Assembly (NCBI GenBank): GCA_963921825.1
Contig: OY997590.1
Location: 42,549,039-42,613,038 of the forward strand
Origin: Erodium maritimum
Lineage: Eukaryota; Streptophyta; Magnoliopsida; Geraniales; Geraniaceae
Reading direction: 5' to 3'
DNA: 64,000 nt
Shown: in pieces, positions 28,901-64,000 of the stretch
Layout: each line of letters starts with the position of its first letter
Numbering within the stretch: the first letter of the stretch is position 1
Notes under the pieces: generated by a model
Seen by the model: only the letters and a program-made list of their open reading frames with translations
Told to the model about the DNA's origin: nothing
Database searches by the model: none
Made by a program: the position numbers and the translations under genes

Positions 28901-30566
28901 AAATGTATAACTAAAATTTTTAAAAAAATCAGAAAAATATATTTTATATCATATTTTCATTTTGAATTAAGTTGTTAAAAAATATTTATCAAACAAAAAT
29001 GTTTGTTCTCTTATATTTCAGATCTAAATCTGACCTATCAGCTTCCTCCTTCCAAAATCTCTACAGATCTACCGATTTCTCCAAATCCACCCTTATCTCT
29101 TCATCTTCCTTTAAGGGCTTCAGTTTAATCATGAATCAAAAACTTTCCATGTGCATCAAAATCAAAAGAAGATGCCAAGTTCGTCCCGTTCCGATTGATC
29201 GATGTTCATGATCTCCAAACCCTTTCAGATCTTCAAACCCTCACGGATCTCAGATCTAACTCTGTCTTGGTCTTCTTACTCGGCCTAGTTGATCGAAACG
29301 TGTACTGGTTGAGCCTACGCCGGAAGAACAACAACAAATCTTGTAGGTGGTCGAGAGCCAGCAAGGAGAGTGAGTACGAGCGGCGGCGACTTATTCCCGT
29401 TCTCGCCGATTAAGAAAGGCTTACTCTCTTGTGCTCTGGACACGAGTTCTGGACCGAATGTCGGGCAGTTCGGTAGGGCATTTAACCAAATTTTATCGGG
29501 AAGAAGCGACGGTGTCGACGTAGAACTTTTTCGAGCAAAAAGAGGTCGTGGTGGCTAGTGTTTGGGTGGTTCGGGATGGTGATGGAAGTGGGTTGGGTAA
29601 TTAAACTGAGTACAAGTGGGAGATCAAGTCAGTCCCGCGAAAGAGGAGAACGAAGCTTGGGGATATAGTTGGGTGAACGAGAATGAGGGAACTCCGACTA
29701 TATAGTTTGAGGGCATAAGGGGGTGTGATTAATTGGGGATGGTTATTGCAGTTTGGATAATTATAGTTGGTGGAAGTAGTTGTGGGGCTTGTATGAAGTT
29801 GAAGTTGGGAGTCAATAGCAACTATGGTTCTGCAATTTTGGTTTTTTTATTGTTGTATTTGTATCTATATAAGTCTTCATCTCGAAGTTGTGGGAACCAG
29901 ATATATCCGAATCCTTGATGGGCACTCTTCCTTAACACCAGATCTGTGTAGAAACTAAACGAAACGAAAATTTCAGATTTTAGATCTGGGTAGAAACTGG
30001 AGAAGGAAGAACCATAATATTAAAATCTGATATTTTATTAATAACCTTATATATTTTTTAAAATTAAAATCTGAAATAAAGTTAATGAAAACTAATTAAA
30101 ATTTATGTGTATAATTAAAAGGGTAAACTACAAATGCATACCCTGAAGTTGGCACGTTTAACCGATGATTACCCTGAAGTTCAAAAACTACTGATGCATA
30201 CCCTGAAGTTACAACTTGTAACTAGAAACCGCTTCCGTCAGTAAAATGACGAAAATACCCTCAACTACACTTCAATAATTATTTTAAAAAAAATCACTTT
30301 TGTAATATATATATATATATATATATATATACTTACTTATTAAATGACTTCATTTTTATTTAAAAAATCACTTCAGTTTTATTTTAAAAAAATCACTGAG
30401 GGTATTTTCGTCATTTTAGCTGACGGAAGGGGTTTCTAGTTACAAGTTGTAACTTCAGGGTATGCATCAGTAGTTTTTGAACTTCAGGGTAATCATCGAT
30501 TAAACGTGCCAACTTCAGGGTATGCATTTGTAGTTTACCCTAATTAAAATAGGGTAAAAAACCAAA

Positions 30567-33600: not shown

Positions 33601-36600
33601 TGTCTTTCTGCCAGCACAACATTATGTTAATCAGCCTCACAAGAAGTGCCACTCAATTCAGGACACTTCAACACTCCACCTCAAGCACCAGAGATTCTAT
33701 CAATTTGGGACACTTCAACATTCTCTCATGTGCAGGATTTTAAACACAATGAGTCATGCACGTGGACAAAGAATTAATAGGGAGGAAAGACAGGCCATGG
33801 GCCCAATATAAGCCAGCTCTGATAACATGTTAAGCATTACTCCAACCTAACTTAAGGCAATTAGGTAGCGGGCTCAATATATTAAGTGGTCATTAACTTC
33901 GAATTTGTTCAATGTGAGGAACGTCAACATAAAACACATTCTTTAGATCGTAGACTATTTGTGCAAGTTGCCTCTCTATTTAATACAAAAAGAAATTATA
34001 CCGGAGATAGGAAAGAGCAAAATAAAGAAGTTCAAGACTGTTTAAGGAGACATACAAACATCAAAACAAAGGGGAAAATGACTAACAATTTATATGGAGA
34101 AAGGACTCTAAGTCCCCTAGCATCACCAAATATAGACAACTATAAAAGTGTGCACCTGCAACAAAATGCAACCTTCAAGGTCAATTTCCAATACATATAA
34201 ACTCTTTTCTTTGTACACAGGTGAAAGCTTGTTGGATATTTGTTATGGGCCATGTGGGCCGGTTCAAAGGCCTAGTATACACTAGGAAGTCGCGCGCGCG
34301 AAGCAAAGGAGAAAAGGGAATCGCACGCATCCCTTCTGCAGAGCCGGCTGCCTAGGCAACTCTTCTATTTCCTGTTTTAGTTGGTTTCTTAATTTCAATT
34401 GTAATAGGATTTGGGAACTTTGGGTAGTTTGGAATAATTGTTGAATTCGGAATTTGGGTTGTTTTAGGAAAGCTCTCTGGTTATAAATACCAGGGAGGAT
34501 TCATGAATAAAGCATTGAGAATTAAATTGACTATCTTTAGTTCTCTACCAAGGTCTTTGAGTTCCCTTACACACGAGCTCATAAACTCTACACAATTGGG
34601 AGGAAGAAGAACAAGGATTCGTTCCAACGAACCCTTGATTTGAAGTCCTACCAAGGTCGCATAACGAGATCCATTAGCGAGGCACATAACAAATTGGTAT
34701 CAGAGCCACACGTTATGGACCAAGAGCAATCGTTTCAGCAGCAAGTTCTGGCGTTCATGGCCGAATATAAAGCTGATAAGCTGCAAATTGAAGCTGATCG
34801 ACTGAAGAGTGAAGCTGATCGGAGAGAGGTGCAGAATTTGGTTGTCCAGTACCGCGCCCTATCCCTTCCCCAGTAGGAGCAGCCGCCGGAGGGAAGCTCG
34901 GCCTCAGGCAACCGGCAGCGCACACCCCCGCCGGAGGGAAGCTCGGCCGCTGTCAACCGGCAGCGCACACCCCCGCCGGTCCCAGCACCGGTCGCCACCG
35001 GCCCTGGTGGGGACGGAACTATCGTCCCTCGCGTTACTCGCCTCGAGTTTCCTCGTTTTGATGGCCGATCCGACCCGACAGCATGGTTGAACAGGTGTGA
35101 AGCGTTTTTTCTCCACCAACGTACTCCGGCAGACGAAAAAGTTTTATTGGCAGCTTTCCATTTGGAGGATGCGGCACAACAATGGTATACGAAAACCCAA
35201 AGAGATGTTCAAAACTTGAATTGGCCTTCCTTCAAACTTTATTGCGATTCCCGCTTCGGGTCTATTCTAGCAAGCAATCGATTGGGGGAGCTCGCCAAAT
35301 TACGACAGGAGGGTTCGGTAGACGAGTATGCCATTCAATTCGAATGCCTGGCAGCGCAGATCCCAGATTTGACTGTTAGCCAGGAAATCTCCTTGTTTCT
35401 CAGTGGCCTGCAGGTGAAATTATCCATTGACGTCGATATCCAACAACCACCAGATTTGACAACGGCTATTGGACTGGCTAAACTATATGAGAGGAGGAAT
35501 CAGGAAGACGTTCCGATACCACGTAGGCAGCGCCCGCCACATCCGTCGCCGAGGCCGTTTGCTAAGAGAATCTTGAAAGAAGAAAAACAGGACCGGATTG
35601 CCAAGGGTCTCTGCTTCAATTGCGAGGAGCCATATGCCTTTGGGCACAAGTGTAAAAATCTTTTCTGGTTGGAGCTGATTGAGGACGAGGAAGACCCGCC
35701 AGACCCAGAGGAGGTCCCTCCGTCTATATCACTACACGCCATGACTGGGACAGTCGCACCACAGACTATGCGGGTCCGGGGAACCCTACAAGGTGCGGCT
35801 TTGTTGGTCTTAATTGACTCAGGCTCCACTCACAGTTTCGTTGATGAGGGGAACGCTCGCAGGGTGGGGTTACCGGTCCAGTCAAGGTCCGGATTACGTG
35901 TCTTGGTCGCCAATGGAGAAAGCGTTTCTAGTCCGGGGGTATGTCGTCTGGCCCCACTCAAGGTTGGTTCCGAGACATTCCCATTTGATTTGTTTGTTTT
36001 TCCTTTGTGTGGGTTCACGACAGTGTTGGGAGTGAATTGGCTACGCACCCTGGGGGATATCCGATGGAATTTTGATCAAATGACTATGCGATTCTCTCTT
36101 TCTCACCGCCCCATAGTCCTGCGGGGTCTGCACCCCAAAGACAAGGGACCCGTATTTGCTGCCCTGTCAGGGAGTCGTTCACAGGAGCATCTTTGCACGT
36201 CCCTACTGGGGGAATTCTCGGATGTCTTTGCCGAACCTAAAGGCCTGCCGCCTTCCCGATCAGCGGATCACCGTATCCATCTATTGCCGAATACGGCACC
36301 AGTGGTGGTTCGGCCTTACAGGTACCCACAACGTCAGAAAGATGAAATCGAAGCACAGTGTAGGGACATGCTGGCGCAGGGGATCATTCGCCCCAGCAAA
36401 TCTCCTTTCTCCTCTCCAGTATTATTGGTTCCGAAGGCAGACAAGACTTGGCGCATGTGCGTAGATTATAGGGCCTTGAATGAGCAGACGGTCAAGGACA
36501 AGTTTCCCATTCCAGTGATCGATGAATTGTTGGATGAGCTGCATGGGGCGTGTTGTTTCTCCAAATTGGATCTCCGTTCCGGGTATCATCAGGTCAAAAT

Positions 36601-39600
36601 GCACCCAGAGGACATTCAGAAGACGGCATTTCGCACCCATCATGGACACTTCGAGTTTCTGGTAATGCCATTTGGCCTGACTAATGCACCGTCCACGTTT
36701 CAGGCATTAATGAATGACATCTTTGCGCCATACCTGAGGCGCTTTGTGTTGGTATTTTTTGACGATATCTTGATCTATAGCGCCTCTTATACTGAGCACC
36801 TCCACCACTTGCGGGTAATTCTATCCTTACTACGTTCTCATTCCCTTTATCTGAAGCGTAGCAAGTGTTTGTTTGCTCAGACACAGGTGGCATATTTGGG
36901 GTTTATTATTTCGGGACAAGGAGTTCAAGCTGACCCTGACAAAATCTCGGCCATGACTGACTGGCCCTGTCCCGCAACACCTCGGGCCCTCCGTGGCTTC
37001 TTGGGGCTCACCGGTTACTACCGGAAATTTTTCAAAGACTACGGGATTCTAGCAGCTCCGATGACTCGTTTGTTAAAGAAAAATTCTTTCAGCTGGGACC
37101 CGGAGGCGCAGGCCTCCTTCGAGGCTCTGAAAGTTGCAATGACAACAACATCGGTGCTTGCTCTTCCAGATTTTGAAAAGGAATTCACCGTGGACTGTGA
37201 TGCGTGTGATTCTGGCATTGGCGCGGTACTCCACCAATCTAACCGACCTATTGCTTTTTTTAGCAGGACATTTGCAGCTAGGTATACGAAGTTAGCGGCA
37301 TACGAAAAGGAGTTGATTGGGCTGGCTCAAGCTATCCGTCATTGGCGCCCCTACTTATGGGGTCGACAGTTTCTAATTCGGACGGACCATTATAGCCTCA
37401 GGTACTTGCTCGATCAAAGGGTAGCAACATCTCCGCAGCAGCGTTGGTTGTCCAAACTAATGGGCTTCGATTTTCGAGTTGAATATCGTTCAGGTCGCGA
37501 GAATGTGGTGGCAGACGCTCTTTCTAGGCGTGACGAAGAGGTCGGCCTCTTATTGGCTCTCTCCGCCCCTTTATTGCACTTGTGGGATGAGCTGGTCACC
37601 GAGAGCAAGTCCTCGCCGGTCATCCAAGAGAAGGTGGCTACGATTCGGTCCGGAGCCCTCTCGAATTTATGGGAGGAACGTGACGGGGTCGTGCTCTTTA
37701 AACAGAGGGCTTGGTTACCAGGGGACTCGACCTTGATCCCCTCTATTTTGGTTGTCGTCCACAACACAGCTCACGAAGGGTACCAGAAGACATTGGTCCG
37801 AGTTGCGGCTGATTTCTATTGGCGAGGTATGAAAAGCCAAATTCAGGCATTCGTGCGTGCCTGTGATGTTTGCCAGCGTAACAAATCGGACTACTTACGT
37901 CCGGCGGGCCTCCTCCAGCCATTACCCGTTCCTTCTCAGGTTTGGGCTGATATTAGTATGGATTTTATTGACGCATTGCCCTGTTCTGGCGGGAAATCGG
38001 TTCTTTTTGTGGTGGTGGACAGGCTGTCTAAATATAGCCACTTCATGGCTCTTTCGCACCCATACACTGCAACATCGGTGGCCAGGATTTTCTTTGATAC
38101 GGTGGTCAGGTTGCACAGTATTCCTGAGACCATTGTGAGCGACAGGGATAAGGCATTTACAAGTGCTTTTTGGCGGGAATTATTCCGCTTGAGCGGGTCC
38201 TCACTACACATGAGTTCAGCATATCATCCTCAGAGCGATGGGCAGACAGAGGCGGTGAACAAAACTTTGCAAATGTACCTCCGCTGCTTTGTGGCCGAGA
38301 ATCCGAAGCACTGGACTCGCTGGGTGGCGCGGGCGGAATACTGCTATAACACCAGTTTTCATTCCACTATCCGCTCCACGCCATTTGAGGTGGTTTATGG
38401 CCGGAAGCCACCTCGGTTGTTGGATTATACCCCGGGCGCAGCCAAGGTGGAGGCCGTGGATCGGGAGCTGCAGGAGAGGGACGAGAAATTGCAGGCCCTT
38501 CGGCTCCAGCTCTTACGGGCTCAACAGGCTATGAAGGATCGCTACGATAAGGGCCATCGGGATGTTTCATTCGAAGTGGGGGCATTAGTTCTCCTGAAGT
38601 TGCAGCCTTACCGACAGAAGACAGTGGCACCTCGCAGCGGGAGGAAGCTGAGCCCGCGGTTTTATGGCCCATTCCGGGTGATTGAACGTATTGGCTCTGT
38701 GGCATACAAGCTGGAACTTCCAGCCGAGTCGCGCATTCATCCAGTTTTTCATGTATCGTGTTCACGATTGTTTATAGGGGATGCTACGGCGGTACCACTT
38801 CTGCCACCACCAGAGGCTCTTATCGCCCCGCCGGTCCCACTTGCAGTATTGGATGTCCGCACTAAGGAAGGGCAGCCCGAAGTTTTGATCCATTGGTCGA
38901 CCAAATCACCTGCAGAGGCTTCGTGGGAGCTTGCACGCGAGATGATGGAGTCATTTCCTTCCTTTGCACTTGAGGTCAAGCGCTATTTGGATGGGGGAGT
39001 GATGTTATGGGCCATGTGGGCCGGTTCAAAGGCCTAGTATACACTAGGAAGTCGCGCGTGCGAAGCAAAGGAGAAAAGGGAATCGCGCGCATCCCTTCTG
39101 CAGAGCCGGCTGCCTAGGCAACTCTTCTATTTCCTGTTTTAGTTGGTTTCTTAATTTCAATTGTAATAGGATTTGGAAACTTTGGGTAGTTTGGAATAAT
39201 TGTTGAATTAGGAATTTGGGTTGTTTTAGGAAAGCTCTCTGGTTATAAATACCAGGGAGGATTCATGAATAAAGCATTGAGAATTAAATTGACTATCTTT
39301 AGTTCTCTACCAAGGTCTTTGAGTTCCCTTACACACGAGCTCATAAACTCTACACAATTGGGAGGAAGAAGAACAAGGATTCGTTCCAACGAACCCTTGA
39401 TTTGAAGTCCTACCAAGGTCGCATAACGAGATCCATTAGCGAGGCACATAACAATATTGTCTTAGCCTTAGGATATACAAACAGCCAACGTCCAAGAAAA
39501 TGATATGACCCAGCATAAATGAAATGTGGTATTATAAGGAATTCTAGTACATGGTAATCTAGCACACAAGGCAGGGGAAATTAGTCTGACGTGAATGAAG

Positions 39601-45869: not shown

Positions 45870-46030
45870 GGCTGTGAGGAGGTGGAGAGAGAAAAGAGAG
45901 GTACGAGCACGAGCGAGCACTCCTTTTTGATCCCTCGAATCAGTGCTTCGAGTTTGAGCTGAAAGCTCTGCTTGGGTTTGGGTACGAGTTCGTTGGGGCC
46001 AAACTGGACCGAACTGGTCTGCTAATTCAG
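45870..46030 (-). promoter_or_regulatory. Short upstream region of the SPOC gene
   Basis: Only about 160 bases lie between the SPOC start codon and the end of the neighbouring MULE-like element. They must contain the 5' UTR and probably part of the core promoter. No motif was assigned. Confidence 0.4.
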
Positions 46031-46181
46031 GGCCTTATTAGTTAAATGGCCTTTTTCTAGGAAAGTATAATTAAAATAGTCTCACCATTTAGTGTTCTTA
46101 CCATTTAATGCTCTCACCTACCTAATCTCCTCCTTATTAATGACTCTTTCCAACTACCAACATTACTCTCAGGGATGATCC

Positions 46182-46450
46182 ATGTCAGCACCCAACTCTA
46201 TACTCATTGTTGTTCCACGTCAGCTTTCGTTTGTCATGTTGGCACCAAATCCAGCTGAATTGGGGGAAATCGAGTTTTACCTCATTCTCGTTCGCTTCTC
46301 CTTCATCCTCGTTTTTCTTCTTCAATTGCTGTTGTCCCGTGCATTGTTTGTCCTCCTACCCGTTGTTTCTTCTTCAATTTGTCGTGCGAGCTGCTCAATT
46401 GATTGTTCCATTGTCATTGAAGGCTGCCCAGAAAAACTCTAACTCGAGGT
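46182..46450 (+). other. Possible 5' non-coding exon of the GRF gene
   Basis: A pyrimidine-rich leader-like stretch ends CTCGAG followed by GTAAGTAATT, a strong donor site. With the GRF coding exon beginning at 48563, a long 5' UTR intron (about 46451-48500) is plausible. The short frames here are not credible as proteins. Confidence 0.35.
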
Positions 46451-46854
46451 AAGTAATTGGAAAGACCTAATTTGTAGATTTTGAGCAATATGTATGTTTA
46501 AACGTAGTTAATGTTATCATAGAATGGTTTTGAAACATATTTCAAGCTAGTATTGATTCATTCGGACCTCCATTTCGTGATTCTGTGGTTCGAGTTCGTA
46601 CCATGCCGATGATAATAGTTCAGATCGACACGTTCTGGTATGAGCTGTTACCAGGTCGGTTTGGCGTTCTGGTTTCATGTAAACTAAAACGGGTGTCCAT
46701 CCGGTCTTTTACTGTATCAGAATGTAGTATCAATCTGTTATTAACTCATGTATATTTATGCCTTTACCCCTTTTGGCTTTTGTTTGAAAATAGTTTTACA
46801 AGTCCTTTATGTACAAAGGCCTTTTTGTTTGAAATTGTTTTAAAATAGATTTGT

Positions 46855-48235
46855 AAATATTTGTAGATGTCTGTGGAAGTATTTGTAAATATTTATCGGA
46901 CTGTGGAAGTTCAAGAACACTTTGTGATTGTTAAGTTTGCATGTTATGATATTTTTTTTATATTCTATTCCATTTGTTGCTTATATTTGTTTTCAATAGT
47001 TATTTTTGGGGGAAATGCTGAATTTGTTGTCTGGTGTTCCAAATACTGAAGACATTAACCAGACTGGAGTCCAAATCGGAATAATATTTATAGACAGGCA
47101 GTCCAAATATTTGTAAATATTTATCGGACTGTGGAAGTTTAGGAACACTTTGTGATTGTTAAGTTTGCATGTTATGATATTTTTTATATTCTATTCCATT
47201 TGTTGCTTAGATTTGTTTTCAATAGTTATTTTTCGGGGAAATGCTGAATTTGCTGTCTGGTGTTCCAGATACTGAAGACATTAACCAGACTGGCAGTCCA
47301 AATCGGAATAATATTTATAGACAGGCAGTCCAAATTGGAATTCAGTTTCTAGACTGGAATGTAGAACGCTAATAACAATTTCAGACTTTCATGAGAACCT
47401 GGGCAGTAACTCCTAGAACACACATAGAAACTGCAAAATAAAGTGAAAATCTATAAAAGTTCTTCTAGATCTAGAAAATATTTTCTAGAGTAGCAGATTG
47501 TAGACACGATGAGAACAGAATTGTTGCTTCCCAGAAACACGAGTACAAGGTACAGAACTCTAGAAATTGTGTTCATTCATATGTTGCATACAATATTTGT
47601 TTTTTTACCAATCCTATTAAAGTTTGGATATCCTTCCAAAATATTTAAAAGAGCAAAACAAACACATTAAAATGGTTTCTAAAAAATAAATTAAAATCTA
47701 AAATACGACTTCCATCCTCCAAAAAAAATATAAAATTAGACTTCAAGAAAAATTATCGGACTGTGGAAGTTCAGGAACACATTGTGATTGTTAAGTTTGC
47801 ATGTTATGGTATTTTTTATATTCTATTCCATTTGTTGCTTAGATTTGTTTTCAATAGTTATTTTTCGGTGAAATGCTGAATTTGCTGTCTGGTGTTCCAG
47901 ATTCTGAAGACATTAACCAGACTGACAGTCCAAATCGGAATAATATTTATAGACAGGCAGTCCAAATTGGAATTTTGTTTCTAGACTAGAATGTAGAACG
48001 CTAATAACAATTTCAGACTTTCATGAGAACTTGGGCAGTATCTCCTAGAACACACATAGAAACTGCAAAATAAAGTGAAAATCTATAAAAGTTCTTCTAG
48101 ACCTAGAAAATATTTTCTAGAGTAGCAGATTGTAGACACAATGAGAACAGAATTGTTGCTTTCCAAAAACACGAGTACAAGGTACAGAACACTAGAAATT
48201 GTGTTCTTTCATATGTTGCATACAATATTTGTTTT
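46855..48235 (+). repeat. Three direct repeats near the left end of the MULE-like element
   Basis: A block containing TTATCGGACTGTGGAAGTT, TGATTGTTAAGTTTGCATGT and GACATTAACCAGACTGG occurs at about 46890-47105, 47120-47340 and 47755-47965. Copies 2 and 3 share a further 260 bases (to about 47610 and 48235), with TCATGAGAAC and CTAGAAAATATTTTCTAGA. Shorter echoes (CCAGACTGGCAGTTC) appear near 49375 and 49445. Confidence 0.82.
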
Positions 48236-48562
48236 TTTACCAATATTTTTTTTACCAATATTTTTTTTTACAATATATTTTTTTACCAATCCTATTAAAA
48301 GCAACAAAACAAATGAATTAAAATGGTTTGTAAAAAAACTATTAAAATGGTTCACTTAGGACTAATAAAATGGGTGACTTGACTTAGGACCATTAAAATT
48401 TAAAATGAATAATAAAGCAAACACACGTTAGTTTTACACCCAGCCGTTAGTTAGTTTTTGACATAATCTGTTACTTTGTTAACGATAATATATTTCGACC
48501 CACACGTTTGCAAACAGATTTTATTTGAACATTAAGGCGCAAACGCAAAAAGTGTGTTCTTC

Positions 48563-49313
48563 ATGAAGAAATCGACCGCGAACGCGAAGAAGAAGGGTTT
48601 TTACCACTGTGGAGTTGAAACTCCTGTACGAACCTCAACCACGAAGATGAATCCAGGAAGAAGGTTCGTTGGGTGTGGTAATTTCATGGTAAGTCAGTCA
48701 AAAACCAATAATTTATTTTAGGTTTTTTTTTAATTTGGAAATTCCTGCTGAAATTAGGGTTATTTGATTTGGGAAATCCTGCTGAAATTATAGTTTGTTA
48801 TTGATTTGGTAAGTCCTGCTAAGATTAGGGTATCCTAATTTAGGAATTGCTGCTGAAATTAAGGTTTCCTTTTGATTGATGTGGGCATTGAAATTTATGC
48901 TGAAATTAGGTCTTGTTTTGTTTTTTTGCTAGAATGAAGGACCCAAAGGGAAATGCGTTTTTTTTCGCTGGATTGATGGACCCAAGTTCGAATCTGGGAT
49001 AAAGTCAGCTGGGAAGTCAAAGCAATTCAACAAAATATTAGAAGATAGAGGGCCAATTTACCCAAATGGCCTTTTAGAAGATAGAGTTGCAATGATGGAA
49101 GATGGAGAGTTGCAATTGCTTGAGAAAATGAAAGTTTGTGAAGATACAATTGCAAGGATGGAAGCTGAGCTTTCTATTGTGTTTGAACAACAAAAAAGGA
49201 TTCTGAAGCTACAATTGGATTTGGATGCTCAAAGAGACAAAGGCAAAACAGTGATCATGTTAGTTGTTGTAGGATTTGTTATCAATTTTTGGATAAGTAG
49301 GTTAGTAGTATGA
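48563..49313 (+). CDS. GRF-type zinc-finger protein with C-terminal membrane segment
   Basis: Two exons, 48563-48688 and 48933-49313, with a GT (GTAAGT)..AG (TTGCTAG) intron in phase 0, encode about 168 residues. The GRF zinc finger spans the splice site: FYHCGVETPVRTST, NPGRRFVGCGNF, then GKCVFFRWIDGP. A coiled-coil stretch follows (LLEKMKVCEDTIARMEAEL, EQQKRILKLQLDLDAQ). The C-terminal VIMLVVVGFVINFWI is a likely membrane anchor. GRF fingers bind single-stranded nucleic acid in other proteins; many short plant GRF-plus-membrane proteins have no known role. The gene seems intact. A 36-base in-frame insertion in exon 2 carries the element's terminal motif. Confidence 0.85.
49038..49086 (+). 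repeat. Terminal motif of the MULE-like element inside the GRF exon
   Basis: Bases 49051-49073 are identical, over 23 bases, to the complement of 58771-58793, the right terminus of the element (starting GGCCAATTTACCCAAATGG). They are flanked by two copies of TTAGAAGATAGAG (49038-49050, 49074-49086). Motif plus one repeat is 36 bases, so the frame is kept. Confidence 0.85.
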
Positions 49314-49547
49314 ATGTATGAATGTATTTGGATAAGTAGCTACAACTGTATGTTGTTGTTTGTGGGTTGCTTGTAACCAGACTGGCAGTTCAGATTGGAA
49401 AATGTTTTCCGGACTGGATTATAATTCTGATACTGAAAAGAACCAGATTGGCAGTTCAAATTGGCATACCTTTTTCCAGATAATTACATGTACTAAAAAC
49501 TGAACTGTAAATCATACATAACAATAAGGCATAAACTAGAATTGGTA

Positions 49548-49549
<2 letters not shown>

Positions 49550-49605
<56 letters not shown>
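49550..49605. repeat. TA microsatellite
   Basis: About 28 uninterrupted TA units downstream of the GRF gene. Confidence 0.95.
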
Positions 49606-49609
<4 letters not shown>

Positions 49610-49807
49610 GACATACAAAATAGTTAACCAAATCCTAGATATCAAAAACAACCATTAATTAAAAGTCAAACTTCCACATTGAAACACAACAAAAGCAACA
49701 AACATGGAACATATGTTGCTTTCCAAAAGGAGGTCATGGCCCTACAAACAAGAATTGGCATATATAAAACATAAACTAACTAACTAACTTCTTATAGAAG
49801 AAGTTAG

Positions 49808-50368
49808 TTAGTCCCAGGAAGGCCAGTTGGAGCCGACACTTTCACCAGGGTCGGCGGCCGGGTTTGCAGGAACAAACAGGGCGTCATAAGGATCATCTTC
49901 TTCTTCTTCCGGCGGGGCTGGGGCTGTTGCTGCTGCTGCTGGGGCTGGGGCTGTTGATGCTAGGGCTGGGGCCTTCTCCTCCTTCTCCTTCTTCTTTTCC
50001 TCCTTGTCCTTGTCCTTCTCGTCCTCGTCGTCATCGTCCTCCTCCTCTTCCTCCTCCTCATCCTCGGAGTCCTCATCCTCCTCCGCCCATGGGTCGTCGT
50101 CCGACTCGGACGACTCCTTTTCGACGACCTGTGGGTCGTCGTCAGGGTCTCCCTCCTCCTCCGCCCCGGAGAAGGGCTCGTCAGAGGGGGCGTCGTCGTT
50201 AGACTCTTCCTGCTTCCTTTTACGACTGTCGTCGTCGTCTTCGTCACTGCTGCTTATGTTTGTGGCATCAGACGGGGGTGAGAGTGGGGGGTACAGGCTT
50301 GGTTTGGACTCGTCAAATAACCACGCCTCGGGGGAGTTCGGTGGTGGGGGTGGTGGTGAAGAGTCCAT
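49808..50368 (-). CDS. Highly acidic protein, function unknown
   Basis: From the Met at 50368 the frame encodes about 186 residues. A proline-rich start ([20 protein letters not shown]) is followed by a long Asp/Glu stretch with Ser and a Lys-rich patch (DEKDKDKEEKKKEK), an Ala-Pro linker, and the end DDPYDALFVPAN ... SNWPSWD. I chose this Met because further upstream the same frame is only the translated TTC microsatellite (poly-Leu). The composition suggests a nuclear or chromatin-associated protein, but no family is recognised. It lies in the MULE-like element on the same strand as the DUF1985-Ulp1 gene. The stop falls in a hairpin (ACTAACTTCTtatAGAAGAAGTTAGT). Low complexity means the frame could be conserved by chance. 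Confidence 0.55.
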   Translation of the reverse strand: MDSSPPPPPPNSPEAWLFDESKPSLYPPLSPPSDATNISSSDEDDDDSRKRKQEESNDDAPSDEPFSGAEEEGDPDDDPQVVEKESSESDDDPWAEEDEDSEDEEEEEEEDDDDEDEKDKDKEEKKKEKEEKAPALASTAPAPAAAATAPAPPEEEEDDPYDALFVPANPAADPGESVGSNWPSWD

Positions 50369-50403
50369 GGATGGAAGATGGGGTTGCAGTTGCAAAGGAA
50401 GAG

Positions 50404-50513
50404 GAAGAAGAAGAAGAAGAAGAAGAAGAAGAAGAAGAAGAAGAAGAAGAAGAAGAAGAAGAAGAAGAAGAAGAAGAAGAAGAAGAAGAAGAAGAAGAAG
50501 AAGAAGAAGAGAA
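50404..50513. repeat. GAA microsatellite, about 36 units
   Basis: A long GAA run upstream of the acidic-protein start. On the opposite strands it gives spurious poly-Leu, poly-Phe, poly-Glu and poly-Lys frames. Confidence 0.95.
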
Positions 50514-50799
50514 CACTCAAACAAAGACCTTTTAGGAAGCAGAATGGATTTTCAGTGTGGGTTGCATGGGTTCTAGATTGGTTTCTTATATAGACTTGGA
50601 AAAGCAGTACATGATTACAAAAATTTATTTTGACATGACAAGTAGGGTTAAAGATGTTATTACAAGTGATAATTACACCCATAAACGAAAAGACTCTTCG
50701 GTTCATGTATAGGCATGGCCCTATAACTGTAATTAATTTGACAAGACACAACTGTTCACTATCCAATTAAAACCGATTTTCACATAGATTCATCAATTT

Positions 50800-50960
50800 G
50801 AAATATATATTCTAGACTTGAAAACCATTCTAGAAATATATTTTCTAGAATTCACATCCATACTTGAAATATATTTTCTATACTTCAAAACCATTCTAGA
50901 AATATATTTTCTAGATTGACAGTCAAAGACTAGAAATATGTTCCCAGAATGGAACAGAAT
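50800..50960. repeat. Short repeats of TCTAGAAATATATTTTCTAG
   Basis: The palindromic motif TCTAGAAATATATTTTCTAG occurs at least twice with variants, similar to CTAGAAAATATTTTCTAGA near 47475 and 48105. These may be subterminal binding sites of the element; that is inference. Confidence 0.55.
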
Positions 50961-52391
50961 TAGTCTCCGACCGTAAATCTGTCCTCATATGTTCAGTTTC
51001 CAAATAAACCCAACGTACAAAATAGTATAATACATGTAACATATAACAATTAACAGTACAATCCATTCAACATAAGGCTAACATTATAATAATACATGAA
51101 ATCAGTTTAGATGTAAAACCAATCTTGGTCACCAAAATAATAAAATGCACATCAAAGTGTACAATTCAAATTATAATCCACCTTAAATATTCAAATTATC
51201 AGTCATTGAAACCAGTAAAGTTTTATTCTCGATGATCATATGAAAACTCAGTCATTTTTGTAATCCAATAACTTCTCGAATTGTGTTTCTATGTCCACAC
51301 ACATCTTCAAGCGGTAAACAGAGACATGCTTTGGTTGCATATAAATAGGGATCGGAAATTATTGGAGCTACAGCTCGCAATACTTCAGCGCATAAACACC
51401 TGAGTCTCCTCTGCACAATAAAAGCAAATTAGTGACTACTAAGTAAGGGTAAGAGTTATAGAACAAAAAAAATGTTATAAGATGCAAAGTTGTAAAAGAT
51501 TACATGCCTCTGCTCCGCTTGAGGCAAATCCGACCGCCTTTCACACATCCACATTGTGCCCGAATGGAGTAACTCCCCGTGAAAATTCTGGGCAGCAATG
51601 AGAATTTGTGGGAACATCACCAAAAAAGGTTCCATCACTCCAGAAATGGAATTATCCGGGACAATGCTTCTATCGCAGTCATAAATTATGAGCTTGCAGA
51701 GGGTTACGTCCGCCTCCACCATAACCCAATTGTCACGCCCCAATTTCAGTAAACTGAACTCGGGACGCGAACGTTTTAAGAAGATACGAAACTTGGCACC
51801 TTTTTTCATTAAATCACTTTAAAAGTACCATTTGTTCAACAAAATAATAATTACAGTTCAAAACACGTCCCAACAAGTGGACAAAAGTACACGGTATCCG
51901 TCACTAGACTCAAAAGACTGAAAGCCGGACTCCGCTCCTAGCTCCACAAGCTTCGAGAGCTCACCTAGTCCGTCCCACAAACAGTACCTGCAGGAAAAGC
52001 AGCTAGGGGTGAGCGTTCGCTCACCACCACGGATAACATACTGACTACGGCATAGTTAGCAGACAATGCCGGTAACACCAAAACTAAACCCAACACCGGG
52101 AATACCATCCCCAAACTCAAGCAACTTAACTGACACACAACCCGTTACCTTCCTTGACCAACTCAACACTTTGACACGTAAAGTAGACCCGACACAACGA
52201 TCACGGCCTCTCCCAAGGACTCGAAAGAAACTACGCAACACCAAACAAAATCACAAAGGATCGCACACCAAACAAGATCACAAAGGATCGCAAACCAGCT
52301 GCTCAGTAACCTCCCTCACCAGACTCAACCTCAAACTCGTAAAGTAAAACCGACACCACCAACAATGACCTTCCCCAAAGACACGAACCCA

Positions 52392-52616
52392 GATCAGGCT
52401 AGCCGAAGAATGCTCAGAACCTGCCGAGCCTCGTACACGGATCAGGCCAGCCGAAGAATGCTCGTAACCTGCCGGGACCCGGTCACGGATCAGGCTAGCC
52501 GAAGAATGCTCATAACCTATCGGGATCCGGACACGGAACATGCTAGCCGAAGAATGCTCAGAACCTGTCGAGGCTCGAGTTTGGTCAGGCCAGCCGAAGA
52601 ATGCTCGTAACCTGCC
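52392..52616. repeat. 48-bp tandem repeats in the solo LTR
   Basis: About 4.7 units of 48 bases, each with CAGCCGAAGAATGCTC or a close variant followed by AACCTGCC. The 48-base length makes all three frames open, which explains the repetitive ORFs. Confidence 0.88.
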
Positions 52617-52779
52617 AAAATCCACACCACTCCCCGACACACAGTCGGTTCGGGCAAACACAAACACAAGAAAGTTCAACAAACAGGCACTCAAGGCCAC
52701 TCAAGACACCTCAACAGTCAAGACTCAGGTTCAACAACCCCACGGGCCATCATGGCCTCCTAAAACACAACCACTTAAC

Positions 52780-53240
52780 TCACGGGCTCAACAACCCCAA
52801 GACACCAATAATAACACACGGGCTCTCATGGCCACCCAAACTCAACGGCAAACATAAGGGCTCTCATGGCCACCCAAACTCAACAGCACATAACACGGCT
52901 CTCAAGGCCACCCAACTCAACAACAAAACACGCTTGCAACTTACCGAGACTCTAACTCGTAAGCCAGCTAAAACACCAACAGTAAAGTACGGGCTCTCAT
53001 GGCCACCCAAACACGAATAATAACACGGGCTCTCAAGGCCACTCAAGACTCAACAATAATAAAACGGGCTCTCAAGGCCACCCAAACACCAAAAGATCAA
53101 ACAACCTCCAGCTTAACCAAGCCTCCAACAGTCCTAACATCAACAGTTTCTCAATCAACCTCCGGGCATGGTCATATGCCTCCAGTACTCCTAATATCGA
53201 TAAGTTCACAATCAACCTCCGGGCATGGTCATATGCCTCC
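52780..53240. repeat. Irregular GGGCTCTCATGGCCACCC repeats and a 58-bp duplication
   Basis: GGGCTCTCATGGCCACCCAA and GGGCTCTCAAGGCCAC variants occur about eight times between 52780 and 53090. A 58-bp unit (AATCAACCTCCGGGCATGGT) is repeated at about 53153 and 53210. Confidence 0.8.
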
Positions 53241-55974
53241 AGTAAAACAATTAGCGCTAAGTTCTCTACTCCTACGACACTACTAAGTGTCACATGCCTT
53301 TCCAATAATTACTAAGTTCCCGTAACATGCTTTTCTGATAAACGCTACAATCCCGTATCATGCTTTTCTAATAATTACCAAGTTCCCGTAGCATGCTTTT
53401 CTAATATTTAAATAAACCTATTCAACCCACGACACCCCGGTGTCACATGCAATTCTACTGTTAACTTTCCCCAGTCAGGGCCGAGATCCGGCTACTTTTC
53501 CCTACCTCGTGCGTGTTCTCCCAAAAGCCAACCACGAGATCCGGTGATGATCTCAATCACTCACCCAGCTTTCCCTTGCCTCGGTCCGTGGCACGATCTA
53601 AAAGAACACAATTTAAAGGCACTTAACAACTTGCAGCAATAAACTGAAAATCATTAAACTCGATGCCCAAACTTAACCCCGACAATGTCGATCACTCCCA
53701 AACTTCCCAATTACTCGACATTGTCGATAAAGGACCCGTAAAAGCCCGATTCGCCCGACATGGCGAATCTGCCCGGGTTTCGTTAATTGCATTTCGGAGC
53801 TCCGAAAGCCCCCGTTTTCGTTTCTACGATCTTAGAATAATTCAAGGGTTCCAATGCAATCGACGGAATCAATTTTCGATGCCCGAGCGTTCTAACTCCG
53901 CGTTTAAGTTTCTAACCACAATTTCCGAATTCTCACAACTTACAAACCCTAATTCCCTGTCTCTCAATACACAACCGTAACCCACAAAAAAAACCAAACT
54001 TTTGTTACCAATTAATAAAACCCAAGGAATAACTTTGCTATATCTATCTTATTTTGCTGCTAAAAGAACCACCAAAAACCCCCAAAATTAATACTCCTCC
54101 TGCTGACTTCTATGTAGTTCCAGAAAAAAAAAGATCTCATTTCCCTTTTAAAGTTGTCCAGCCACTTCCCAAGAAATTACCACACACGATAGGCTTCTCC
54201 AAGGTATAATTAATGTTTCATAGTGCAACAATCAAGAAGTACTCAGTAAACTAAAAAAATCAGCCTTAGCTCTTAAAAAAGATAAAGGATTAACTAATGG
54301 TCCTTAAGGATCTACCCATGAAGATGAACTCACCTCTTGATGCTATGACGTAAGTGGACCCAATTGCTCCTTGCTGATCACGTAGCACTCAAGAGCATAA
54401 TCAAAGAACAAAGCTTTGTTCTTTTCTCCTGTCCAAGATGAAACTGCCGCCGCTCAAGCTAAATAAATGGAGCAAGAGCTTTTATGCTCAATGTTGCAGC
54501 CTTCTCCAAAACTCAGATCCCCTTTGTTGTCTTGCTTTTATTTTGTTCAACAATACCTAACACCACCAATTAATTGACATGTGGCAAGGTGGGTCCCACA
54601 CCTTTTGGAAGAATATCTAGAAGATATTTTCCAATCAGGTTCGCGAAAATTCGGACGTTTCGGGTCCCGAACGGGCACTTTTTCCAAGAAATTATAAAAC
54701 TTGACGGGCTACAAGGAAACGACTCAACTAAGACCGCTGCGACGACGGCTAAGCTTTTTGGATCCAAAACGGTCCTCGAATGGACCAAAACGTCGCACGG
54801 TTGACTTTTCCAACGAAAAGTCAACATTTCCCAAATTGATCAGAAAGTTGCCCTGAGTCCCCCGGAACTCACTTTGGTCGATAACGGGGTCAACTTAAGT
54901 CCGGTATGACCCTCGGGGTCCAATTCCGGTTCAATTCAGTGTCTGCTCAAAATTTTTAAATTTTCCTGTTTTTCGCAGGTTTGACTGGCGTTGACCGGGA
55001 GTGGTTATTACACCAATGATGTGCCATTTCGTCCACCAGCAAAGGAAAAAATAATTTTTCACAACCTGCCCATTCCTTACCACCAAAGATCGGAAGATTG
55101 CCCCTAACGTATTCCATTAAGCGATCTACTACTTGGGGGTTCTCACTTTTACTCCATGCCATGTGCCCTTCCTTGACGACATCTGCAAATTCTGCGTCCA
55201 ACACCACAACATTCTGTGCATAGTGCTTCTTGAAACGCCCCTGCCGCTTTCTAATTCCAAACATGCAATCATTCATTTGCTGCATACATGAAAGTGAATT
55301 ATATTAAATTTAAATTAAATTGAAAACAATGCAAATAATTAAGGTTCCACCTTACCCTTGCATTCAACTTGTTGTTTGACCGGCTGAGATTTTTGTAGTA
55401 AGACGAGGTGACCTGTCCGTAAGGTGTTTTTGGGATTTCCTCTAAGGGTATGTTCTTCCTCTTCAGTTTTGCAATCACATCCTTATAAACCTGGGTTGTG
55501 GATTGATCAGGCATAAGAAGATGGTTCAACTTCTCTAAGTTCCCTTTAAGTCTCCTCTTCTTATCCTTTGTTGCTTCGTTGTCCCGCTCGTGTATAACAG
55601 GAGCTGAGACTTTCGTCGAGCTTGATTCTTCTGTATTCCGCTTGCTTCTGGCAGGATTCTTTGTGGCAGCCCTCTTTGTGGCCCTTGTGGCAGGCTTCTT
55701 TGTGTTAGACTTCACCTTGTTTGCTAAACGCTTACTTCTAGTCGTTATAGCTGGAATTTCCTTGGCCTTTTCAACAGCAACCGGCTCATGGACCTCTTGG
55801 TTCACCTCAACTACTTCCTTCTCAACGGACCGTTCCTTTTCATTCACATATTCCCCTTCATTGACTTCCTCACCAACACTTACTTGTTTGTTCACTTCTT
55901 CATTAACTTCTTCAGTCACATTTCCTTGTTTGTTCACTTCAACTACAATGGGCACACCTTCTTGTCCAGCTGCC

Positions 55975-55975
<1 letters not shown>

Positions 55976-56005
<30 letters not shown>

Positions 56006-56080
56006 CTTCTTCTTCTTCTTCTTCTTCTTCTTCTTCTTCTTCTTCTTCTTCTTCTTCTTCTTCTTCTTCTTCTTCTTCTT
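55976..56080. repeat. TTC microsatellite, about 35 units, coding for poly-Glu
   Basis: In the minus frame of the DUF1985-Ulp1 pseudogene this gives about 35 Glu in a row. Confidence 0.95.
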
Positions 56081-58803
56081 TGTTCACTTCCTCTTCAACG
56101 GCTAATCCAATTTTTAAAACATCAACATCCTCTCCACCAGTGGGAAATCCCACTTCTTGTTGGTTCACATCCATTTCCTCCTCGGGCACTTCTTCTTCTT
56201 GGTTCACTTCAACTCCAATGGCCACACCTTCTTGGTTCAACTCCTTCGCACCAACATCTGCCGTCACATTATCGAACATGTACATGTCATCTTCTTGGTT
56301 CTTCTGGTTGTCATGCCTAGGAAATGATGCTTTAGAACCTGCTCGGAAGTGGTTTGATGGACTGTCTTCATTTTGCCGGGCTGACAGAGCTTCCATGATC
56401 GCCTCAAATTGTGTCTTCTGCACTTCCAACACACTTTTCACATCAGCCTGCACTGACGGGACCTGGTTCTTTAGAAACTCAATTTGCTCCATGACAGCCT
56501 TGTAAACTCCATCATCGGACTGTGGGTGTGACGTATGAACCTGAACCTCCTCTGGTGCTGTTGGTGGAGTTGGCGGTGCCACATGGGCGGTCTCATCTTG
56601 TGGAAATGAAACAACATAGCATTGCTCCATCTTTTCCACCATGTTGTCCAACAACGGATCGGGTGTTCTTCTTTTTGGTTCACGAATTCTTCCATCCAAG
56701 GCTGCTTCTTTTTTTCCTCAGTGGGGACCAACAGACTTACTATTTCCTGAGCACAAAAAGAATAAAATTTAATACGTGCAAATTTTATATGAAAACGCAT
56801 ATATTATATGAAAATTAAATTCATAACCTCCGGTGAGCTTTGTAAGAGTGCTTCCCTAACAGCACTATAAGACGGATTTCTACTCCACGTTATCTTCCAT
56901 TTTAAAATTCTAGGCAAGTCTACGCCGAAGTTTTCACGAATTCTTGCGAACTTCGTTGCTAATGATGGTATGCATTCAAATGCAAGTACCTACGACAAAA
57001 GATACAAATCATAAGAGACATCATGTACACTACGATATTAAAAAAATATTTGTGTAAAGGAATAGTTACTTACTATGAGAGGAAGAAAAAAGCCGGCATA
57101 TGTCATATTACTCTCATTTCTTGGGTTCTTCTGAGCCACCAACATTTTATTTCTCAACTTCTTTGCTTTTATCTGTTTTAGTAGATAACTGAAGGACAGA
57201 TTACCCCAAGGGTATATGTAGAACATCTTCAAGTTATCCACTAAAGCCAAATAGTTTCGATCCAGCTTATGGAAGCGTCTGTCCAATGGCATCAATACTC
57301 CCCCGATGATTAACAGCAAGAAAACCCTAATAATATCCCAATTAGGCTTTGTAGAAGGCCTAACCTCCATTTGTTCGCCAACCAACTAGGTCAATTTCTT
57401 CTCTAAGGTCAACATACTAGCATCTAGTGTCGGGAAGTGTTTCGAGGAAAAAACTTTGGACTTCAATTGTTTTTTTAAAAGTTTATCATCGGCAAAAGCT
57501 CCACAATTCAGCTCCGATATTAAACAGTATTCCTTTAAAGAAAATCTGACCGGTCTTCCTTGGACCAAGAACCAGATTTCGGACGACCGGTCCAAGTCAA
57601 TTTCTCGAACTAACAGCGTCCAAGGAATTTGACAAGAATTGTCACCACTCGGTTGGATGTCCATCAAATGACCAAATGGAGCTTTTTTAAGGGTACGATG
57701 TGGATTTCATCATCACTTAACCTCTCAAGCTCTCCTTTGATGAACTTAAAAGTTCCCCCTACATGACTCTTCACTGATATCTTGCAATCGAAATGTTCAT
57801 TCTCGGCCAAAATAGGTTTAAACTTTGGCAGCTCAATTTGGACTAATCGTGCATTTTCTAGGTTTGCACTAGAACTTTCACCCTCATCATAACTTGGAAT
57901 TTCTCCGTCGAAGGAAGTTGACCTAGAACTTTCATTTTCTTCAGCATGTGAGTTTTGCCTACTCTCTAGGGATGATAAACTTGCCTGGTAGGGTGCAAAC
58001 AAGTAATTACAATAACAGAAAACAATTCATTTCAAATTGAACTGCAAAGCTATAAAAACACTTCATTTCAAATTGTACTTTAATTCCCAGATTGCCAACC
58101 AGAACCGCCATAAATTTAATGACCTAACAATCCATTCTAGAATATCAACTCCCAGATTGCGAGCCAGAACAACCCTTGATTTGACGCCCTAGAAATCCCC
58201 TAAACCGTATCTAAGCATAATGAATAAAACCCCCTAAATGTCTACATTCAAACAGGAATTCAACGTAGCTACACAACAATTAAACACAATTTCACCCAAG
58301 TTTCAGCCTATCTAAGCACAAGCAGGGAATGGAAACCAGATGGGTTAGGGCTTACTTACCATCTCAGCTCGGACAATACTTGTAGCTCGTGGAGAATGGC
58401 CGGAAATTGGAATTCGATCCTTCGAGCTTGCTGGAGAAGAACAGAGACGATTCCTTGCTGGAGATCAGTTGGGTCGAATGTTTCTGGGTTTTGGGGGGGT
58501 TTTGGTTTGAGTCGAAGAAGAAGAAGAAAATAGAATTGAAGGAGGGAAAAACACAGCTAACATAAGTTGTTTTAATTTGAAGTTGAAGCTGACTAGGATA
58601 ATTTGAAGAGCTGACAAGGATTATTTGAAGATGACAAGGCAATTTTGTTGAAGTGCAAAAAGGGCACAACAGTAATCTCATGCATTTTACTAATAAAAAG
58701 AAAATCAAAAATAAAAGAAATAAGTTAAGCTAAATTACGGGGTCTGCCACCGTAAGACTTTCCTAGAAAAAAGGCCATTTGGGTAAATTGGCCGTTAATC
58801 CAG

Positions 58804-62005: not shown

Positions 62006-62773
62006 TAACATTATCGCCGGACTCTTGGCTTTTAAATTTAATCTTAGAAAAATCGTGTTTAATTATATTTAGGGATAATTTTACTTTAGTATTTTTTTTT
62101 ACTGAAATATGCAATATTATTGATTCAACTGATTACATTATTGTGCGTCGAGGAACAGGTTTCCCGACCACGAATAAAAGGTCAGAATAAATGAACAATG
62201 GTTTTCTGATCCTTTTAGTACCAAAACCGACGCAAGCGGTATTGTGATGCCTTATGGGCCGCGACAGAAGACGGAGAGGGGGAATGGGATACCGGAGATC
62301 CTGAGGGACCTCGACGGTAATGGTGAAGAGGGGAGGCATCACGTCGTACATGGACCCCTCCCAAAGTCAGTCCCTGATGCACGGCGTAGCAATCATTCCT
62401 CCTGGCGGGGTTGTTTCCCCGCCCTGAACTGATCCTCCCGAGGGACCCAGTTGTTGAATGTTTCAGAGTGCTCTGGTTGACCCCGGCGCCAGCGACTCCT
62501 GAAATTCCATCCTTATGTGCTCCCAATCTCTCACGAGATCTCTCATCCAGATGAGCCTAGCACGGTAGTGGATCCTTCAGCACTTGGAAAAGCAGGTGGC
62601 CGAGGTAGAGTCCCACTGGCCGAACTCCGATGCCCCAGCCGAGGTGACATGAGTGACCGAGGGGGCATGAGGGGCCGAGGACCCTTATTCACTTTAGTAT
62701 CTTAATTATATTTTATCTATAGTGGCCTAAACCTTTTTTTTTTCTCATTTCAGTATTTTCAAAGAAATTATTA
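62006..62773. other. No gene identified
   Basis: A GC-richer block (62230-62690) between AT-rich flanks that both contain ACTTTAGTAT (about 62081 and 62690). It could be an inserted sequence, but I recognise neither a gene nor termini. Confidence 0.35.
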
Positions 62774-62782
62774 ATTTTATTT

Positions 62783-63765
62783 GGGTAAACTTCACCTCAC
62801 TACCCTAAAAATACTTGTGTTTCATCTCACTACCATAACCAAACTTTGTTGCACCTCACTACCCTAACCAAACTTTTAGTTGCACTTTCATACCCGCCGT
62901 CAACTTGACATCTATATTTGGAAGGAAAATGGTTAAAAGTCCAAAATACCCCTCACTAACACTCAAATTTTCAAAAGCATGCCATTGGTTTTCAAAAATT
63001 CTTTTTATTTATTTATTTATTTTATATAAATCAGTTTTCTATTTTTTAAAAAACCAGTTTATTCTTAAAAAAATCAGATTTTATTTTTTAAAATTAGTTT
63101 TTATTTTTAAAATTACTATTTTATTTAAAAAAAATCAGATTTTATTCTTAAAATTTTAGTTTTTATTTTAAAAAATCAGATAAATCAATTTTTTTAAAAT
63201 AGATTTTATTTTTAAAAATCATATTTTATTTTCAAAAAATCAGTTTTTTTTAAAACATAGTTTTCAAATACGCCCCCTTCTTTTCTTTGGAAAAAAACTG
63301 TTTTTCTAAAGTGAATTTTTGAAAATATAATATGATTTTTTAAAATTTTGATTTTAAAAATAAATAAAATCTGATTTTTAAAAATAAAAAATATTTAAAA
63401 AAAGAAATTTAATTTTAAAAATAAAATAAAATATTATTTTTTTAAATAAAAACTAAAATTTTAAAAATAAAATCTAATTTTTTTTAAGAATGAAATTATT
63501 TTTAAAAATAAAAAACTTATTTATATAAAATAAATAAATAGAAATAATTTTTGAAAACCAATGACATGCTTTTCAAATTTTGAGTGGTGTATTTTGGACT
63601 TTTTAATGATTTGGATGAAAAAATGGATGGAAAATAGGCAGAAACTAACGGTAGGTACTAAACTGAAACTAAAAGTTTTGTTAGGATAATGAGGTTCAAC
63701 AAAGTTTTGTTAGGGTAGTGAGATGAAACCCAAGTATTTTTAGGGTAGTGAGGTGAAGTTTACCC
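62783..63765. mobile_element. MULE-type palindromic element, 983 bp, TSD ATTTTATTT
   Basis: It starts GGGTAAACTTCACCTCACTA and ends in the complement, with inverted arms of roughly 200 bases and an AT-rich core of TTTTTAAAA-type repeats. Exact 9-bp repeats ATTTTATTT flank it (62774-62782, 63766-63774). The arms resemble the MITE at 32900-33190. Confidence 0.9.
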
Positions 63766-63774
63766 ATTTTATTT

Positions 63775-64000
63775 TAATACTCATCGTTAATTTTTCATTT
63801 ATTTTTTGACAGAAAATCGTCATATAACATGACACATGACTCAATTTAAAAAAATACCAAATTACCCCTCAATTTTTAAACCTTATCTCTTCTCTCTTTT
63901 TCCTCACTCATCCTCATCTCTTACTTAATTATCTCTTCTCTAACGTCTTATCTTTTCATCAACAAACTATCATCAACGTAGTTGTCGATCACGAAGGCGG
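63775..64000. other. Window edge, no gene seen
   Basis: AT-rich, then C/T-rich sequence that could be the leader of a gene beyond the window; nothing supports a call. Confidence 0.3.

What the first reader, a model, noticed from the sequence alone, without database searches (positions are those of the whole stretch)
46031..58794. Multi-gene MULE-like element carrying GRF zinc-finger, acidic and DUF1985-Ulp1 genes without a visible transposase
Imperfect inverted ends (AAATGGCC / CTAGGAAAGT) and 7-of-9 matching flanking 9-mers enclose three genes and large subterminal repeats. Ulp1-like cargo in Mutator-like elements (KAONASHI) is known. A combined GRF finger plus acidic protein plus DUF1985-Ulp1 module is not one I know as a described unit. 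If several copies exist, the GRF and acidic proteins may be co-mobilised partners and not chance cargo.
Basis: partly seen in the sequence, partly recalled or inferred. Interest (0 to 1): 0.75.

Follow-up and report, generated by a model that had tools for sequence, protein, structure and literature searches.

The report
Decayed VANDAL/KAONASHI-like plant transposon
This is most likely an old, broken plant jumping gene of a known kind that carried its own presumed anti-silencing gene plus two small companion genes; whether those companions belong to a regular team could not be tested here.

Summary
The ends are real: above chance, the right end matches only two other places in 64 kb, the left end and an unexpected 25-base copy inside the GRF gene. 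The flanking 9-mers match 7 of 9, which is weak (5.2% by chance over 49 offsets). The GRF gene (168 aa, two exons) and an acidic ORF (186 aa) are open. The third gene is DUF1985-Ulp1, the architecture of VANC/KAONASHI-type genes, and is dead here: two apparent frameshifts, an in-frame stop, Ser at the catalytic Cys, two later stops, and a 3,282-bp solo LTR with a CCAAT duplication. No transposase domain was found in six frames. Tandem repeats lie near the left end. A TCTAGAA-type motif is enriched in non-coding DNA and absent from exons, as VANC targets would be, but the statistics are only suggestive. Best reading: a decayed, non-autonomous VANDAL/KAONASHI-like MULE. Whether the three genes form a recurring unit could not be tested: the host-genome search did not complete (16 attempts), and the protein searches found no GRF or acidic relative.

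The parts
46022..46030 (.). left flanking 9-mer CTAATTCAG (candidate target-site duplication)
   Evidence: 7/9 match to 58795-58803; weak on its own
46031..46066 (+). left terminal inverted end GGCC-TTATTAGTT-AAATGGCCTTTTTCTAGGAAAGT
46856..48348 (.). left subterminal tandem direct repeats (units 85-96% alike) that hold TCTAGAA-type and CCAGAYTG motifs
48563..48688 (+). GRF gene exon 1 (start codon, most of the finger)
   Evidence: donor ATG|GTAAGT
48933..49313 (+). GRF gene exon 2 (rest of finger, coiled-coil-like stretch, C-terminal hydrophobic segment, stop)
   Evidence: Pfam PF06839 E=1.2e-4, 22.6 bits, below its cut-off of 25.9; open frame
49038..49086 (+). in-frame insertion in the GRF CDS: TTAGAAGATAGAG on both sides of 23 bp of terminal sequence (25-bp exact match to the right end at 49051-49075)
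49808..50368 (-). acidic ORF, 186 aa, no intron needed, open
   Evidence: no Pfam family above cut-off
50571..50930 (.). block between the acidic and Ulp1 genes with repeated TCTAGAA-type motifs
51250..51730 (-). 3' part of the DUF1985-Ulp1 gene: second half of the C48 domain; Ser at the catalytic Cys, followed by two stops in the homologous frame
51731..55012 (.). solo LTR, 3,282 bp, TGT...ACA, inserted in the Ulp1 catalytic exon; 5-bp duplication CCAAT at 51726-51730 and 55013-55017; not part of the original element
55013..57990 (-). 5' part of the DUF1985-Ulp1 gene: DUF1985, acidic linker, first half of C48; two apparent frameshifts (about 57664-57706 and near 56717) and an in-frame TAG at 57386-57388
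   Evidence: DUF1985 E=7.7e-22 with the stop read as X; frames; stop
58360..58362 (-). possible start codon of the DUF1985-Ulp1 gene, directly before a GTAAGT donor (inferred)
58757..58794 (-). right terminal inverted end (read inward: CGGCCAATTTACCCAAATGGCCTTTTTTCTAGGAAAGT)
58795..58803 (.). right flanking 9-mer TTAATCCAG (candidate target-site duplication)

Best explanation
46031-58794 is one decayed, non-autonomous Mutator-like element of VANDAL/KAONASHI type. It was probably inserted by a transposase supplied by another copy, about 160 bp upstream of the start codon of a neighbouring open frame. Its largest gene encoded a DUF1985 protein with a C-terminal Ulp1 domain. By analogy with VANC, that protein would have bound repeated short motifs in the element's non-coding DNA and removed silencing marks, so that this and sister copies could be expressed and moved. 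The GRF and acidic proteins would be accessory products (the GRF protein possibly nucleic-acid binding and membrane-tethered). In this copy the DUF1985-Ulp1 gene was later destroyed by point lesions and by an LTR insertion. Shown: ends, gene content, domain matches, lesions, repeats. Inferred: trans-mobilisation, motif binding, anti-silencing, roles of the GRF and acidic proteins.
For: Terminal repeats above chance. DUF1985 E=7.7e-22; C48 E=8e-12 over positions 10-215 of 217 when the pieces are read together with X at the joins. The 3 proteins found at E<=0.001 (all Perilla frutescens) carry DUF1985, 2 of 3 also C48, with acidic linkers. Degenerate ends, DUF1985 genes and tandem repeats in non-coding DNA are published marks of VANDALs (PMC10398659 passages; PMC5735166 sections 8-9; PMC6446971 passages). 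VANC genes with Ulp1 are called KIU in a review (PMC13317346 passages). TCTAGAA, both strands counted: 11 in 3,637 bp of collapsed non-coding DNA (8 without overlaps), 0 in 4,199 bp of exons, 1 in the solo LTR, 6 in 51,161 bp elsewhere. All 7 CCAGAYTG sites in the element lie on one strand. The left end lies 162 bp upstream of a neighbouring ORF's ATG. End sequence sits inside the GRF gene beside 13-bp repeats, as after an earlier insertion by the same family.
Against: The 9-mers match only 7/9, which is weak. There is no transposase, so clade membership cannot be tested. Only one copy was seen. The motif was chosen after looking: some 7-mer is as frequent in 24 of 200 (order 2) and 34 of 200 (order 3) Markov resamples, and 15 of 400 block-matched control scans reach the same score. 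Of 12 block comparisons only 1 exceeded all 200 shuffles, by one point. The known VANC21 motif YAGTATTAY does not occur in the element. End sequence recurs inside the element away from an end (49051). The A-run frameshifts could be assembly errors.
Confidence: 0.62

Rival explanations
1. A Pack-MULE-like element: the GRF and acidic genes, and perhaps the Ulp1 gene, are chance captures of host or other transposon genes with no function for the element.
For: MULEs often capture genes, and Ulp1 sequences occur in distantly related MULE families and in CACTA families (PMC2528002 section 10). No transposase. The GRF and acidic proteins had no relatives in the protein searches.
Against: DUF1985 is the domain of the VANC anti-silencing genes of VANDALs, and DUF1985 with C48 recurs in Perilla proteins. 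The GRF ORF stayed open although a 36-bp insertion landed in it in frame (1 in 3 by chance).
Confidence: 0.23
2. No single element: neighbouring remains of two or more transposons, with ends that pair by accident.
For: Weak 9-mer match. A third copy of the end sequence at 49051 could suggest nested pieces.
Against: Across the window the right end finds only the left end and the 49051 copy above chance. The 49051 copy carries its own 13-bp repeat on both sides and lacks the inner CTAGGAAAGT part, so it looks like an insertion footprint, not an end.
Confidence: 0.12
3. A narrower form of the best explanation: a standard three-gene VANDAL/KAONASHI element that lost its transposase gene, in which GRF is simply the already known but poorly described second gene (the VANB position). 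Its odds lie inside those of the best explanation.
For: KIU is described as one of three coding genes in its element (PMC13317346 passages). VANDAL21 has VANA, VANB and VANC (PMC10398659 passages).
Against: None of the passages read ascribes a GRF domain to VANB. The original papers were not held under the DOIs I recalled.
Confidence: 0.2

Closest known systems
VANDAL elements of Arabidopsis (VANA/VANB/VANC)
   Same: DUF1985 gene, short degenerate ends, tandem repeats and a recurring short motif in non-coding DNA, repetitive variable region in the DUF1985 protein
   Different: no transposase; Ulp1 domain attached; GRF and acidic genes; the VANC21 motif YAGTATTAY is absent; binding untested
KAONASHI (KI) MULEs with KIU genes
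   Same: Ulp1 protease domain in a MULE-like element with poor TIRs
   Different: transposase absent, so the reverse orientation relative to mudrA cannot be checked; Ulp1 dead in this copy
Pack-MULEs
   Same: no transposase, several genes between MULE-type ends
   Different: the main gene is of a transposon-borne type, not an obvious host gene fragment

Membership tests
VANDAL/KAONASHI-type MULE | DUF1985 (VANC-type) gene | tested here: met
   PF09331 E=7.7e-22, 78.2 bits, cut-off 35.1; Perilla relatives with DUF1985
VANDAL/KAONASHI-type MULE | Ulp1 domain fused to DUF1985 (KIU) | tested here: met
   PF02902 E=8e-12 with both halves read together, X at the joins; first half alone only E=0.045 and second half alone no match; gene broken in this copy
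VANDAL/KAONASHI-type MULE | absent or short degenerate TIRs | tested here: met
   best local alignment of the 160-bp ends is one 23/24-base block; GGCC at each tip
VANDAL/KAONASHI-type MULE | 9-bp target-site duplication | tested here: inconclusive
   7 of 9; 5.2% by chance over 49 offsets
VANDAL/KAONASHI-type MULE | MURA/VANA transposase of the VANDAL clade | tested here: not met
   no transposase domain at E<=0.1 in six frames of 46000-58801. The same scans found DUF1985 but missed GRF (split by an intron) and C48 (split by the LTR), so short or split transposase remains could be missed too. Hence filed only as VANDAL-like and non-autonomous
VANDAL/KAONASHI-type MULE | motif arrays in non-coding DNA bound by the element's own DUF1985 protein | tested here: inconclusive
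   motif enrichment suggestive only; YAGTATTAY absent, though it is described as particular to VANDAL21; binding not testable with these tools
Pack-MULE | captured host gene fragments between MULE ends | not testable with these tools
   no host genome search was answered

The most novel reading that the evidence does not exclude
GRF, acidic and DUF1985-Ulp1 genes form a co-inherited three-part anti-silencing module. The DUF1985-Ulp1 protein finds the element's own motif arrays, the acidic protein handles histones there, and the GRF protein tethers the complex. The module spreads as a transposase-less element mobilised by relatives.
Probability: 0.1. Interest if true: 0.65.

Novelty: new member of a known kind. 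Interest (0 to 1): 0.35.

Why it matters
If copies with the same three genes exist, this would widen the known set of element-encoded anti-silencing genes beyond VANC and give a test case for what the Ulp1 domain and its neighbours add. If not, it is one more decayed MULE, useful mainly for its layered history: an end footprint in one of its genes and a solo LTR in another.

Tried and rejected
Tried without result: the host genome search with the left end (14 attempts) or with DUF1985 (2 attempts) in the genome search (none answered). Protein search with the GRF protein (22 candidates, none at E<=0.001) and with residues 1-60 of the acidic protein (4 candidates, none at E<=10). In one search only the 7,998 candidates sharing most words were scored. 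A paper search for At4g04775, a GRF-family name recalled from memory, listed 2 papers, not read. Structure prediction of the DUF1985 part with 4 sequences gave mean pLDDT 40.8, too low for a fold search, so none was run.

Considered and rejected: an element running from 49051 to 58793. The 25-bp match is exact, but the flanks do not match, the inner CTAGGAAAGT is missing, and a 13-bp repeat on both sides of the short piece marks it as an insertion. Weak Pfam matches over low-complexity stretches (PI3K_1B_p101, TFIIF_alpha, RNA_pol_Rpc4, EOS1 and others) are below their cut-offs. A weak match of part of the DUF1985 region to Plant mobile domain (E=0.11) was not pursued. The 9-mer match alone is not proof of a target duplication. 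The first LTR coordinates used in scripts (start 51728) were three bases too early; one search gives 51731-55012.
Full report
What is there. The window is plant DNA (inferred from intron-bearing genes, Gypsy-type elements and plant-only domains). The proposed element spans 46031-58794. Its two tips share an inverted block, AAATGGCCTTTTT(T)CTAGGAAAGT, and both carry GGCC at the tip; the nine bases between GGCC and AAATGGCC differ at most positions. The shared block scores 41; 6 of 4,920 random pairs of 160-bp stretches score as high. A scan of the right end over the whole window finds, apart from itself, only the left end (41) and one internal site at 49051 (50) above the best of 40 shuffles (29). 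The flanking 9-mers CTAATTCAG and TTAATCCAG match at 7 positions. Random point pairs with 49 offsets allowed reach 7/9 in 5.2% of cases, and at a single fixed offset in 0.2%. The duplication is therefore plausible but not proven.

Genes. The GRF gene (+, exons 48563-48688 and 48933-49313) has a GT donor and AG acceptor and translates to 168 aa without an internal stop. It matches the GRF finger at E=1.2e-4, 22.6 bits against a cut-off of 25.9. The match starts at profile position 5, at the Cys of YHCG. In the finger as I recall it (CxCG) an earlier Cys would stand where this protein has Tyr, so the finger may be degenerate. The C-terminal hydrophobic stretch looks like a membrane anchor (inference). 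The acidic gene (-, 49808-50368) is a 186-aa open frame with no family above cut-off. The DUF1985-Ulp1 gene (-, about 58362 to 51250) matches DUF1985 at E=7.7e-22 with its in-frame stop read as X. Its first C48 piece alone matches at E=0.045 and the next piece alone not at all. With the pieces in one string and X at the joins, C48 matches over positions 10-215 of 217, E=8e-12. The 3 relatives found at E<=0.001 are all from Perilla frutescens, 25-26% identical over 25-47% of the query; all carry DUF1985 and 2 of 3 also C48. Only the 7,998 candidates sharing most words were scored in that search.

Decay. Several lesions hit the third gene: apparent frameshifts in runs of A (about 57664-57706 and near 56717), where assembly error is possible; a TAG at 57386-57388; and two stops after the catalytic motif in the homologous frame of the last exon. 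The catalytic Cys position reads Ser, in line with the Cys of two Perilla relatives and with the Ser of SENP1 chain 2g4d (weak match, E=0.2; that this chain is a Cys-to-Ser mutant is recalled). Another frame of the last exon is open to a stop, so the exact gene model is uncertain. A 3,282-bp solo LTR, 51731-55012, with CCAAT on both sides sits in the catalytic exon. Stretches related to it lie at 4436-4952 and 5650-6101 in the window at 84-90% identity. So the Ulp1 protein cannot be a working protease in this copy. No transposase domain was found at E<=0.1 in any of the six frames. Those scans did find DUF1985 but missed the GRF finger, split by an intron, and C48, split by the LTR; short or split transposase remains could be missed likewise.

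An end inside a gene. Twenty-five bases identical to the right end lie in the GRF coding sequence at 49051-49075. Twenty-three of them stand between two copies of TTAGAAGATAGAG, which makes a 36-bp, frame-keeping insertion. The simplest reading is a remnant of an earlier insertion by the same transposon family, with target duplication, later cut down to one tip; a templated repair patch is an alternative.

Non-coding repeats. The left subterminal part holds tandem units 85-96% alike. After keeping one copy of each tandem unit, TCTAGAA counted on both strands occurs 11 times (8 without overlaps) in 3,637 bp of element non-coding DNA, 0 times in 4,199 bp of exons, once in the solo LTR and 6 times in 51,161 bp elsewhere (exon borders approximate; microsatellites and parts of introns left out of the non-coding set). 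CCAGAYTG occurs 7 times in the element, all on the + strand, and 3 times elsewhere; three of the seven are copies within the tandem repeats. Results against: the motif was picked after inspection; some 7-mer is as frequent in 24 and 34 of 200 Markov resamples (orders 2 and 3); 15 of 400 overlapping block-matched control scans score as high, 10 of the 12 shown with A/T-only words; only one of twelve block comparisons beats all 200 shuffles, 66 against 65; and the motif of VANC21, YAGTATTAY, does not occur in the element. The pattern is suggestive, no more.

How it most likely works. Published work shows that VANC21, the DUF1985 protein of a VANDAL element, binds short motifs arrayed in the non-coding DNA of its own family and causes loss of DNA methylation there. 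The targets form tandem repeats that change fast, and VANC variable regions carry repeated peptide motifs (PMC5735166, passages and sections 8-9; PMC10398659, outline, abstract and passages). Degenerate TIRs are typical of these elements (PMC10398659; PMC6446971 passages). A review states that VANC genes with Ulp1 are the KAONASHI KIU genes (PMC13317346 passages). Ulp1 sequences occur in several MULE families and in CACTA elements (PMC2528002, passages and section 10). The element here shows much of the same set of features, so I read it as a decayed, transposase-less VANDAL/KAONASHI-like MULE. Roles for the GRF and acidic proteins are inference.

Novelty. Full-text searches for GRF-finger terms together with Ulp1, Mutator or VANDAL terms gave lists in which no paper, by title and start of abstract, describes such a unit: one search listed all 13 papers found, one search listed 20 of 90, one search listed 20 of 99, one search listed 12 of 548. 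The few that hold a GRF-finger term were not read. The library lacks most subscription papers; the original KAONASHI and Hiun reports were not held under the DOIs I recalled.

Noticed in passing
49038-49086: 25 bases of the right end inside the GRF coding sequence, beside 13-bp direct repeats, 36 bp in frame
   Followed up: yes
51731-55012: solo LTR with CCAAT duplication in the Ulp1 exon; related stretches at 4436-4952 and 5650-6101
   Followed up: partly
34241-39459: Gypsy-type element with LTRs 98.9% alike (34241-34696, 39003-39459) around a 1,386-aa open frame, so probably a recent insertion
   Followed up: no
62769-63779; 30120-30541; 32911-33168: long imperfect palindromes (75-83% alike), with ends such as GGGTAAACTTCACCTCACTACCC, foldback or MITE-like
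   Followed up: partly
50405-50509 and 55976-56080: GAA/TTC tracts: a 105-bp perfect inverted match between the stretch upstream of the acidic ORF's ATG and the poly-Glu part of the Ulp1 gene
   Followed up: no
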